64,000 nt of DNA from Brucella sp. 21LCYQ03. GTDB lineage: Bacteria > Pseudomonadota > Alphaproteobacteria > Rhizobiales > Rhizobiaceae. The notes under the pieces were generated by a model. The model was given only the letters and a program-made list of their open reading frames with translations. It ran no database searches and had not been told where the DNA came from. The stretch lies in contig NZ_JAMJWE010000007.1 of assembly GCF_023554105.1 (NCBI RefSeq), positions 1-64,000 of the forward strand, given 5' to 3'. Positions 10,830 to 62,276 of this stretch are shown one piece after another; the first letter of the stretch is position 1, and each line of letters opens with the position of its first letter. Position numbers and translations under genes: made by a program.

Positions 10830-10984
10830 TTTATACAAGCGTATTCGCAAGGACCCGGTGAAAGCCCGGGTGGCTCTTCTGGCCGCCTATCCGCCAGACA
10901 ACGCAACAACATCCCCCATTTTTACAATCGGCCATGTTGAATCGGACGGCTCTCAACGCCCGTCTTCTATTTGCGGAAAATTCA

Positions 10985-28248: not shown

Positions 28249-28275
28249 GGAACCAAAAGCAACAATTGAGCGTTT
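28249..28275 (+). promoter_or_regulatory. EcfG-dependent promoter of the DUF1328 gene
   Basis: GGAAC (28249-28253), 17-nt spacer, CGTTT (28271-28275), 31 bp before the ATG at 28306. A full match to the GSR promoter pattern, inside the GSR locus. Confidence 0.8.
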
Positions 28276-28305: not shown

Positions 28306-28470
28306 ATGCTTTATTATGCTCTCGTATTTCTTGTGGTCGCTCTCGTCGCTGGCGCTCTTGGTTTTGGCGGGATAGCTGGTGCATCAGCGGGTATAGCACA
28401 AATTCTGTTCTTCGTATTTCTGGCGCTACTTGTCATTTCGCTCATCGCATCGGTAATCAGGAAGGCTTAA
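28306..28470 (+). CDS. DUF1328 small membrane protein
   Basis: 54 residues with two hydrophobic helices joined by a Gly/Ala turn ([21 protein letters not shown]). This matches the DUF1328/YtjA-type family of tiny membrane proteins found across Proteobacteria. An AAAGGAG site precedes the ATG. A canonical EcfG promoter lies just upstream, so this is very probably a general stress response effector. The family's molecular function is unknown. A terminator follows at 28555-28586. Confidence 0.82.
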
Positions 28471-29762: not shown

Positions 29763-29940
29763 CGATAACAAAATTAAAGCCGTCATGATTTGAACCATGA
29801 CGGCTTTAATTTGAAAACGCGGAATGTCAGCTGCATAGCGGGGGCACGAGCGCGACATTCTCGCATCCAACTTCAAACGGGGAGATTGAAGTTGGTGATG
29901 AAGACCGCCTGCGGGGGACATATACGATCCTCATCATAAC
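29763..29940 (-). ncRNA. Candidate GsrN-like general stress response sRNA
   Basis: A predicted minus-strand RNA of about 170 nt in the gap between convergent kinase and mur genes. It begins a few bases after an EcfG promoter (29941-29965). Three hairpins follow. The first pairs about 29931-29937 with 29895-29901 and has CCCCC in its loop. The second is a 10-bp stem (29867-29876/29886-29895) with loop TCTCCCCGT. The third is a 7-bp stem (29822-29828/29854-29860) with CCCCC in its loop. The RNA ends in a 15-bp terminator stem (29773-29810). GsrN of Caulobacter is an EcfG-controlled sRNA with a C-rich loop. Homology is inferred from architecture and location only. Confidence 0.65.
29773..29810 (-). 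terminator. Terminator of the candidate GSR sRNA
   Basis: Perfect 15-bp stem ATTAAAGCCGTCATG / CATGACGGCTTTAAT with an 8-nt loop. The minus-strand continuation TTTTGTTAT is a better T tract than the plus-strand one. It may also terminate the convergent kinase transcript. Confidence 0.8.
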
Positions 29941-29965
29941 AACGAAGATTCGCAGCTTTCGTTCC
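29941..29965 (-). promoter_or_regulatory. EcfG-dependent promoter of the candidate sRNA
   Basis: Minus strand GGAAC (29961-29965), 16-nt spacer, CGTT (29941-29944). The -35 element begins 2 bp after the mur stop codon. It points away from mur into a gene-free gap, so it has no protein-coding target before the convergent kinase. Confidence 0.78.
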
Positions 29966-30443: not shown

Positions 30444-30560
30444 TCAGCGAAATCTCCCCAAGCCTTTTCAAAGCGAATGCGCAAAGAGGACATAACCCCT
30501 TGTTTGCTTCAAACCTTGTCTTGAACATCATTCAAATTGAGCGACCAGCTAACAATACTA

Positions 30561-32032: not shown

Positions 32033-32359
32033 CTAACGCACCTCTAAAACTTCGCCACTAAGGCGATCAACAACGACGCGCATATCGTTATCACGGCGAT
32101 CTATACCGCGAATGATGTATGCGTTTCGCCGACGTGATACACTCTCAACCTCGTCCATTCCTTCATCTCTCGCAATTCTTGCAGCCTGACGCTCGCTAAT
32201 TTCTCCACGAACGGCCCGTCGATCACGATTGATTCGATTGTTTCCGTCTGGATTGACCTGAATTCCATTCGGGCCAATTTCAATGCTTTGCGCATGTACT
32301 GACGTGTTAAAGGTAAGCGCGGACAAAAATACCACTGCAATTGCCGAATACTTGTACAT
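32033..32359 (-). CDS. PepSY-domain periplasmic protein
   Basis: About 108 residues with a signal peptide (YSAIAVVFLSALTFNTSVHA, cleavage before QS). The C-terminal PepSY-like region (about 60-108) is seen in RQAARIARDEGMDEVESVSRRRNAYIIRG and DMRVVVDRLSGEVLEVR. PepSY proteins are exported and often inhibit or modulate peptidases or sensor kinases; the target is unknown. ATG 32371 is an alternative start four codons upstream. A longer open frame exists but would place the signal sequence internally. Confidence 0.75.
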   Translation of the reverse strand: MYKYSAIAVVFLSALTFNTSVHAQSIEIGPNGIQVNPDGNNRINRDRRAVRGEISERQAARIARDEGMDEVESVSRRRNAYIIRGIDRRDNDMRVVVDRLSGEVLEVR

Positions 32360-32676
32360 GGCAATATCCATTCCTGTTTTAGCGCCCGCCACAGCAATCA
32401 ACGCAGCCAACCCATCGTAGTTCCGGCGACTGCCTTCAACTCTCCTAACGTCCCGAATATACCGTGAACGCCCCAACTTGGAGTAAGACTATATTTCAAT
32501 AAGGACGAGCTTCAACAGAATAGCAGGATAATGCGTCCCGGACTGCTTTTGATACAAAACACTAAGAAGAAAAAGTAATTTTGATTTTGAAGTTTAACAA
32601 TCAATGCCTAAACTTGAATTTAAGGCATCATCCTTATTAAAGATTTGATATAAAGTATTGGCATTTTGGGGGCAGA

Positions 32677-33114
32677 ATGATTTTAGATTTCATCATCGGA
32701 TCGGCGGTCGGCATCACTGTGATGCTCGTTCATTTGTTAGCCACCCTCACCGTATATTCATTCGTCCATGCAATTGGTAGCAGGATCAACGAGAACAAGG
32801 TTGCATTTCTTATCGTATCTCTAATCAGCCTCTATATCATCCTGTTCATTTGTCTGTGCTGTAGCGTGACGATATGGGCGCTGACATATTATCATATGGG
32901 TCTGGTCGATAATTTTGGTGATGCATTTTATACAGCGATGCTGAACTATACGACGCTCGGGTCAGGCGACCTCAACCAGGTCGCTAAAACACGCCTGTTC
33001 GGACCGATGGCAGCGGCCAGCGGCATACTTATGTTTGGATGGGCAGCTGCATTGTTGGTTTACATCATCCAGCTTCACCTGCCCGTTATTCTGAAAAAGA
33101 AATGGGAAAGCTGA
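32677..33114 (+). CDS. Two-TM potassium-channel-like protein (Ion_trans_2)
   Basis: 145 residues. Hydrophobic segments near 2-28, 42-72 and 110-138 bracket a pore loop with the filter-like sequence NYTTLGSGDL, a variant of TVGYGD. It resembles the short ion-channel-domain proteins of Rhizobiales. The altered filter makes K+ selectivity uncertain. It stands alone, with a strong terminator at 33117-33146. Confidence 0.8.
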   Translation: MILDFIIGSAVGITVMLVHLLATLTVYSFVHAIGSRINENKVAFLIVSLISLYIILFICLCCSVTIWALTYYHMGLVDNFGDAFYTAMLNYTTLGSGDLNQVAKTRLFGPMAAASGILMFGWAAALLVYIIQLHLPVILKKKWES

Positions 33115-43984: not shown

Positions 43985-44060
43985 TGTTTCCTATCCTCAC
44001 AGATAGCACGCGCCTCGTTGGGGAGGCGTGGCCCACTGATGAAAATATCGGAAACCAGAA
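43985..44060 (-). promoter_or_regulatory. serC leader RNA motif (candidate)
   Basis: Minus strand: a hairpin CCACGCCTC-CCCAAC-GAGGCGCGTG lies about 25-50 bp before the serC start, with unpaired flanks. A conserved structured serC 5' leader has been described computationally in Rhizobiales (the serC RNA motif). Location and GC-rich hairpin fit. The ligand or factor it responds to is unknown. Confidence 0.5.
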
Positions 44061-62106: not shown

Positions 62107-62202
62107 AAAAAAAAGAGCCGCAAAGGCGGCTCTCAGGAGTTTAACAGGGAGGCGTCAAACAAAGTGGCTTCACCACTCGGTAAGAATCCAGCCGAACTGG
62201 AT
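62107..62202 (-). ncRNA. Candidate sRNA with CCUCCC anti-SD motif
   Basis: Minus strand, in the 470-bp gap between rcdA and opgC. Hairpin ATCCAG/CTGGAT (62186-62202) and hairpin AGTGG/CCACT (62163-62177) are followed by an unpaired stretch with CCTCCC (62147-62152) and CTCCT (about 62135-62139). A rho-independent terminator (GAGCCGC/GCGGCTC, 62115-62132) with eight T ends it. opgC already has its own terminator at 62277-62302, so this second one implies a separate transcript. The promoter is not clear. Confidence 0.5.
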
Positions 62203-62276
62203 GTAAACCATTAAACGCCGTTAAGATTAATGATTGGTTAATTCTGAGTGCAAGCTGTGGAATAATCCGCAAACAA

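What the first reader, a model, noticed from the sequence alone, without database searches (positions are those of the whole stretch)
29763..29965. EcfG-driven sRNA with C-rich loops next to the GSR locus (GsrN-like)
A full EcfG promoter (minus strand GGAAC at 29961-29965, 16-nt spacer, CGTT) starts 2 bp after the mur stop and points into a gene-free gap. The predicted transcript folds into three successive hairpins exposing CCCCC, TCTCCCCGT and CCCCC, then a 15-bp terminator stem with a T tract. Caulobacter GsrN is an EcfG-controlled stress sRNA with an essential C-rich loop. Here the promoter, loops, terminator and location beside phyR/nepR/ecfG all agree. Three C-rich loops instead of one would allow several G-rich targets, including ribosome binding sites. 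Promoter and hairpins are read from sequence; homology is inferred.
Basis: partly seen in the sequence, partly recalled or inferred. Interest (0 to 1): 0.85.

Follow-up and report, generated by a model that had tools for sequence, protein, structure and literature searches.

The report
Stress-promoter small RNA with C-loops
Beside the general-stress genes of a bacterium of the wider Brucella group lies a stretch with a stress-type promoter motif and a conserved base-pairing pattern that is predicted to make a small RNA, which would likely adjust other genes by pairing its C-rich loops to G-rich messages; RNAs of this kind have been described before.

Summary
GGAAC-N16-CGTT stands one base after the mur stop on the minus strand, and the 174 nt after it fold at -80 kcal/mol (z -10.7) with three open C tracts (0 of 1000 shuffles have three). 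In 31 of 35 genomes of the genus the promoter sits at the same place. Of 43 base pairs, 17 show pair-keeping changes on both sides (27 of the 31 RNAs aligned; 0 of 500 shuffles). Loops 1 and 2 carry CCCC in 27 of 27, loop 3 in 10 of 27. Three genomes lack promoter and RNA together. I read it as an EcfG-driven small RNA of the GsrN-like kind, close to print: Tien 2018 predicts one at the B. abortus stress locus, R. etli has ReC64, B. abortus Bsr6 needs RpoE1. Homology to Caulobacter GsrN is not shown; the GsrN target katG is absent here. Two-C-loop RNAs occur at stress loci of some other genera, but a held-out set did not confirm a shared position. Targets are unknown. New member of a known kind.

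The parts
29941..29965 (-). EcfG-type promoter GGAAC-N16-CGTT, one base after the mur stop codon
   Evidence: same place and spacing in 31 of 35 genus genomes
29763..29936 (-). predicted small RNA (start site inferred, a few nt after CGTT; 3' end inferred from the terminator-like stem)
   Evidence: fold z -10.7; covariation
29896..29936 (-). hairpin 1; loop holds CCCCC at 29913-29917
   Evidence: 6 of 9 alignment pairs with changes on both sides
29867..29895 (-). hairpin 2; loop UCUCCCCGU, CCCC at 29879-29882
   Evidence: 6 of 8 alignment pairs with changes on both sides
29817..29866 (-). hairpin 3; loop holds CCCCC at 29840-29844 (C tract in 10 of 27 aligned RNAs)
29771..29812 (.). long inverted repeat, terminator-like for the small RNA (minus) and possibly also for the kinase gene that runs towards it (plus)
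   Evidence: not called by the pattern scan
   Evidence: PF01475
28706..29713 (+). HWE histidine kinase gene, runs towards the small RNA
   Evidence: PF07536
27321..28115 (+). phyR
   Evidence: PF22029, PF22233, PF00072
26861..27088 (-). nepR
   Evidence: PF18557
26317..26958 (-). ecfG-type sigma factor gene
   Evidence: PF04542, PF08281

Best explanation
This is likely a small-RNA gene, read on the minus strand from a predicted EcfG (general-stress) promoter one base after the mur stop, whose RNA is predicted to fold into three hairpins plus a terminator and would act by pairing its C-rich loops with G-rich leader or ribosome-binding sequences of mRNAs. Shown by sequence: the promoter motif and its fixed place in 31 of 35 genomes, compensatory changes in the stems, C tracts kept in loops 1 and 2 while the stems around them change, and absence of promoter and RNA as one unit in three genomes. 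Inferred: that EcfG transcribes it when PhyR releases EcfG from NepR under stress, that it ends at the inverted repeat, that loops 1 and 2 are redundant seeds with loop 3 a lineage-specific extra, and that it changes translation or stability of its targets. In 14 of 27 aligned RNAs loop 2 holds ACCUCC, which I recall as the anti-Shine-Dalgarno core of 16S rRNA, so ribosome-binding sites are the likeliest targets. Which mRNAs are hit is unknown.
For: Fold z -10.7, 0 of 200 shuffles. Covariation: 98.9% of cells paired; 17 of 43 pairs with changes on both sides against a mean of 7.3 in shuffles (0 of 500 reach 17) and at most 6 in slid versions (27 of 31 RNAs aligned; the shuffles do not keep relatedness, the slid versions do). 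C tract mean unpaired probability 0.95 (loop 1, n 27), 0.94 (loop 2, n 27), 0.83 (loop 3, n 10) against 0.40 for all C. Promoter conserved with varied spacer. One strong copy per carrier genome, so not a dispersed repeat. Clean absence: mur and kinase stops 30-32 nt apart in G031, G013, G012 against 213-253 nt in the three carriers measured. No conserved reading frame. No Rfam family reaches its gathering score at the locus. In print: R. etli ReC64 beside phyR-tcrY needs EcfG1, B. abortus Bsr6 needs RpoE1, GsrN uses a C loop, and either of two C loops of mycobacterial B11 suffices to repress a G-tract leader.
Against: No transcript was seen here; all expression evidence is from print and other species, and I could not see the map position of Bsr6. 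The strict promoter motif occurs 6 times in the window with 1.89 expected. No target was found: katG has no match in the genome; the catalase leader has AGGAGGGA but no long match to a loop; a loop-3 match before the gene at 32677 is not kept in the 5 relatives that I read correctly; a loop-2 match upstream of mur is kept also where the RNA is missing. Four of 35 genomes have no copy that the model finds. Published deletion of bsr6 had no effect on spleen colonisation in mice.
Confidence: 0.8

Rival explanations
1. The conserved structure is only a shared transcription terminator and 3' region for the two genes that run towards each other (mur and the kinase), with no regulatory RNA.
For: The 3' inverted repeat is symmetrical and lies between convergent genes; three genomes manage with 30-32 nt between the two stops.
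Against: A terminator needs no EcfG promoter, no two further covarying hairpins (12 of the 17 pairs with both-side changes are in helices 1 and 2) and no conserved C loops; promoter and RNA are absent together.
Confidence: 0.07
2. The transcript codes for a small protein from the ATG near its start.
For: 27 of 31 sequences have an ATG in the first 16 nt, with frames of 21-61 codons.
Against: Peptide and length differ between clades, 4 of 31 lack the ATG, the alignment has indels that are not multiples of three in the loops, and base changes follow pairing.
Confidence: 0.03
3. The RNA works on a protein rather than on mRNAs, for example as a sponge that binds a translation regulator through repeated C loops.
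For: Repeated similar loops whose stems change freely look like repeated binding sites; no mRNA target could be found.
Against: The C-loop RNAs whose papers I saw pair with G-rich mRNAs (GsrN; B11). The sponge proteins I recall bind GGA, not CCCC.
Confidence: 0.08

Closest known systems
GsrN of Caulobacter crescentus and the predicted GsrN-like RNAs of Brucella abortus, Rhizobium etli, Sinorhizobium meliloti (Tien 2018, PMC5869019; abstract, passages and sections 14 and 17 seen)
   Same: EcfG/sigma-T promoter, place beside ecfG-nepR-phyR (in most), exposed C-rich loop near the 5' end. The window is in the Brucella group, so this is probably the ortholog of the published B. abortus prediction (its figure is not held).
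   Different: GsrN has one C-rich 5' loop and activates katG; here two conserved C loops plus a lineage-specific third, and no katG. No sequence homology shown.
ReC64 of Rhizobium etli (PMC3892343, PMC2881028; passages seen)
   Same: Beside phyR and its kinase gene tcrY, EcfG1-dependent, start site mapped next to an EcfG motif.
   Different: 88 nt against about 165 here; its sequence was not compared; my model finds no relative outside the genus in 199 family genomes (strict filters).
Bsr6 of Brucella abortus (PMC12772402; abstract, passages and introduction seen)
   Same: Small RNA that needs RpoE1 (the EcfG-type factor of Brucella) and has an RpoE1 box in its promoter.
   Different: Map position not seen, so identity with this RNA is an inference; its function is unknown and its deletion did not change mouse colonisation.
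Actinobacterial 6C RNA / mycobacterial B11 (PMC10470900; passages seen; the 6C family is otherwise recalled)
   Same: Two C-rich hairpin loops; either loop of B11 suffices to repress a leader with a G tract.
   Different: Other phylum, other promoter, not among the Rfam matches here; works alike, not a member.

Membership tests
GsrN-like small RNAs of the general stress response (criteria of Tien 2018) | near-consensus EcfG promoter | tested here: met
   31 of 35 genomes, fixed place and spacing
GsrN-like small RNAs of the general stress response (criteria of Tien 2018) | proximity to ecfG-nepR-phyR | tested here: met
   Pfam identities; phyR ends 1.8 kb from the promoter in the window
[quoted passage not shown]
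GsrN-like small RNAs of the general stress response (criteria of Tien 2018) | intergenic transcription that depends on EcfG | not testable with these tools
   no expression data; published for ReC64 and Bsr6
GsrN proper (Caulobacteraceae) | sequence homology to Caulobacter GsrN | tested here: inconclusive
   model R1 finds only the own genome among 289 class genomes (strict filters); GsrN itself was not compared; Tien 2018 reports BLASTn hits in Caulobacteraceae only
GsrN proper (Caulobacteraceae) | katG mRNA as target | tested here: not met
   no katG match in the own genome; 7 of 35 genomes over cut-off
GsrN proper (Caulobacteraceae) | processing to a stable 5' isoform, Hfq effect | not testable with these tools
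   needs RNA
ReC64 | homologous sequence at the stress locus | tested here: inconclusive
   no model hit in other genera of the family (strict filters); ReC64 sequence not in hand
Bsr6 | same map position in B. abortus | not tested
   position not in the passages seen; no classical Brucella record among the 80 named loci
6C RNA (Rfam) | match to the Rfam model | tested here: not met
   not among the 4 gathering matches of the window nor the 8 sub-threshold matches at the locus

The most novel reading that the evidence does not exclude
The RNA is one case of a shape-defined class in the Rhizobiaceae: stress-sigma-driven RNAs whose stems change beyond recognition while two or more C loops are kept, so that several loops on one molecule mimic the ribosome's anti-Shine-Dalgarno sequence and shut or open many G-rich ribosome-binding sites at once under stress. 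Support: 15 of 332 strict EcfG motifs near phyR in 79 loci are followed by at least two unpaired C tracts, against 0 of 117 scrambled motifs and 19 of 6000 random stretches. The preferred position on the kinase side held in the first 39 loci (11 of 18 against 0 of 164, rule formed after looking) but not in 40 held-out loci (1 of 7 against 3 of 143, p 0.18).
Probability: 0.3. Interest if true: 0.62.

Novelty: new member of a known kind. Interest (0 to 1): 0.42.

Why it matters
The general stress response of Alphaproteobacteria is known mainly at the level of transcription. A conserved RNA with redundant C loops, tied to the EcfG promoter, would give the response a post-transcriptional arm outside Caulobacter. 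The alignment, the model and the conserved loops make a target hunt and loop-change tests possible, and may explain the published RpoE1-dependent Bsr6, whose role is unknown.

Tried and rejected
Dispersed repeat: rejected, one strong copy per carrier genome. Known Rfam family: none reaches gathering at the locus; the relaxed scan lists 8 sub-threshold matches, the best being microRNA families on the terminator stem (mir-5727, E 0.0041, 26.4 bits against a gathering score of 100) and, weaker, Pseudomon-1/ErsA on hairpins 1-2 (E 2.1, 14.3 bits), taken as chance. Coding transcript: disfavoured. katG as target: no match in the genome. Catalase leader: no long match to a loop; of the 25 catalase loci that the script ran over, only those whose match lay on the plus strand were read in the right orientation. 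Mur leader: TGGGGAGA complements loop 2 but is kept in genomes without the RNA and lies upstream of the likely start site. Channel-like gene at 32677: GGGGGC before the ATG complements loop 3 but is not kept in 5 of 6 relatives read; the sixth, L197, was read in the wrong orientation and not repeated. Window-wide duplex scan: strong scores spread over many starts, no candidate kept. Primary-sequence alignment of 13 RNAs from other genera: 41% mean column identity, mainly C tracts shared, so no homology claim from sequence. Model R1 on 40 stress loci: best hit L151, E 0.023, at the expected place; the other 12 weak and at mixed places. A weak hit in G187 (E 0.0077) was not followed up. Papers: the S. 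meliloti start-site paper PMC3616915 (passages), PMC2573895 and PMC5596092 (term searches with no occurrence) and the Brucella RNA review PMC9751625 (passages, part 1 of 3 of section 6, section 7) did not let me place this RNA; PMC4438053 (one passage) names two kinases at the Brucella locus. A search for gsrN1/gsrN2 found nothing relevant.

Full report
What was checked. The window lies in an assembly of 4.59 Mb. Mur-like proteins of the Brucella, Ochrobactrum and Falsochrobactrum records among 80 named loci are 84-96% identical to that of the window, so the window belongs to the Brucella group in the wide sense; none of those named loci is a classical Brucella species.

Promoter. GGAAC-N16-CGTT is at 29941-29965 on the minus strand. 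As a motif alone it is weak evidence (6 in the window, 1.89 expected). I therefore found the mur gene in all 35 genomes of the genus that were searched and read the DNA behind its stop. In 31 of 35 the promoter starts one base after the stop, always with 16 nt between the boxes; 30 have CGTT, one has CATT; 29 spacers are distinct, and apart from its first three and last columns (84-100% identical) the spacer varies. Four genomes lack it there: G031, G012, G013 and G027. In the first three the mur and kinase stops are only 30-32 nt apart, against 253, 225 and 213 nt in three carriers measured, and the model finds no copy elsewhere, so promoter and RNA are absent as one unit; G012 is a 72% complete assembly. 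In G027 mur is followed by nepR. Among the 80 named mur loci, 23 have the motif one base after the stop; none of the records from Oryzicola, Phyllobacterium, Paenochrobactrum and more distant groups do.

RNA. The 174 nt behind the promoter fold at -80 kcal/mol against a mean of -40.9 for shuffles (z -10.7). Three hairpins expose C tracts; of 1000 dinucleotide shuffles 17 have two unpaired C tracts and none has three. I aligned 27 of the 31 carriers; G033 (nearly equal to G007) and G004, G032 and G025 (about 50-95 nt longer, in hairpin 3) were left out before counting. The consensus fold has 43 pairs; 98.9% of cells pair; 17 pairs have changes on both sides; 0 of 500 shuffles reach that and slid versions give at most 6. 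Helices 1 and 2 carry 12 of these 17 pairs. The sequences are related, so cells are not independent events. Loop 1 and loop 2 keep CCCC in 27 of 27; loop 3 in 10 of 27. The C tracts are open: mean unpaired probability 0.95, 0.94 and 0.83 against 0.40 for all C. The transcript shows no conserved reading frame.

Spread. A covariance model of hairpins 1-3 (R1) finds 31 of 35 genus genomes, one strong copy each (E 7.5e-9 or better); 27 of these match by construction, G033, G004, G032 and G025 do not; two further weak hits have E 0.25 and 0.92. Beyond the genus it finds nothing in 199 genomes of the family (4 hits, all in the genus), one weak hit (E 0.0077) in 297 genomes of the order and only the own genome in 289 of the class. 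These three wide searches used stricter filters and scored only 12-18 candidates per genome in the rows shown, so diverged copies can be missed. As far as the model reaches, the RNA is a genus-level family.

Other genera. At the phyR loci of other genera I saw minus-strand EcfG motifs behind the kinase followed by hairpins with C loops. Counting in 39 loci (40 fetched, L183 dropped because it has no phyR): 11 of 18 strict motifs at that place are followed by at least two unpaired C tracts, 0 of 164 elsewhere. The rule was formed after looking, so I fetched 40 further loci, mostly less similar in PhyR. There it was 1 of 7 at the place and 3 of 143 elsewhere, p 0.18: the shared position is not confirmed. 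Taking all 79 loci, 15 of 332 strict motifs are followed by such RNAs, against 0 of 117 scrambled motifs and 19 of 6000 random stretches; the first 39 loci, on which the idea was formed, give 11 of the 15. The link between the stress promoter and C-loop RNAs near phyR is therefore likely; how far they are one family does not follow, since a plain alignment of 13 shares mainly the C tracts. By eye, L148, L151, L158, L152, L156, L166 and L229 look like further cases that the strict rule missed.

Mechanism. Established knowledge: PhyR frees EcfG from NepR under stress. Inferred: EcfG then makes this RNA. GsrN acts through a C-rich loop on G-rich sites, and either of two C loops of B11 suffices to repress a G-tract leader. 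Two conserved open C loops on changing stems fit redundant seeds; in 14 of 27 aligned RNAs loop 2 contains ACCUCC. Targets: katG has no match; matches at mur and at the gene at 32677 fail on conservation; catalase gives no clear site. The targets remain open.

What is known. Tien 2018 predicts GsrN-like RNAs at the stress loci of B. abortus, R. etli and S. meliloti from expression, promoter and position. R. etli ReC64 is EcfG1-dependent. Bsr6 of B. abortus requires RpoE1, with a clear promoter box, and its deletion does not change mouse colonisation. Whether Bsr6 is this RNA I could not see; I think it likely. In the listings and passages that I saw from ten literature searches there was no report of a covariation-supported structure or of several C loops for this RNA; most subscription papers are not in that library, and figures and supplements were not open to me.

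Verdict. Observation confirmed, interpretation largely right but with two conserved C loops rather than three, and without shown homology to GsrN. A new member, with added comparative evidence, of a known kind of stress small RNA.

Noticed in passing
window 30453-30460 (minus strand), upstream of mur: TGGGGAGA stands 66-68 nt before the mur ATG in 32 of 35 genus genomes, including three without the small RNA, upstream of a palindrome such as CCAGTTGCAAAAATTTGCAACTGG (likely a Fur/Mur-type operator) and of a GTGCATAAT-like box. Mur mRNA looks nearly leaderless.
   Followed up: partly
window 28249-28274 (+): Another strict EcfG motif lies before a small DUF1328 protein gene at 28306-28470; many loci of other genera also show a plus-strand motif about 0.8-0.9 kb after the phyR start.
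   Followed up: no
window 32400-32424 (-): Strict EcfG motif inside the long form of the ORF at 32033-32476 and upstream of its later ATG starts.
   Followed up: no
   Followed up: no
L161, L172, L174, L180 about 2.3-2.5 kb after the phyR start (+): In other genera an EcfG motif precedes a small ORF that begins MEHIAALL; in L174 and L180 it stands back to back with the C-loop RNA.
   Followed up: no
window 62108-62249 (-), 43986-44038 (-), 10848-10903 (+): Rfam matches: BjrC1505 small RNA, serC leader, sul1 RNA.
   Followed up: no
L241, plus strand, about -1.1 kb from the phyR start: A two-C-loop RNA with a terminator-like end behind a strict EcfG motif on the other side of the stress locus, so such RNAs may move around it.
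   Followed up: no
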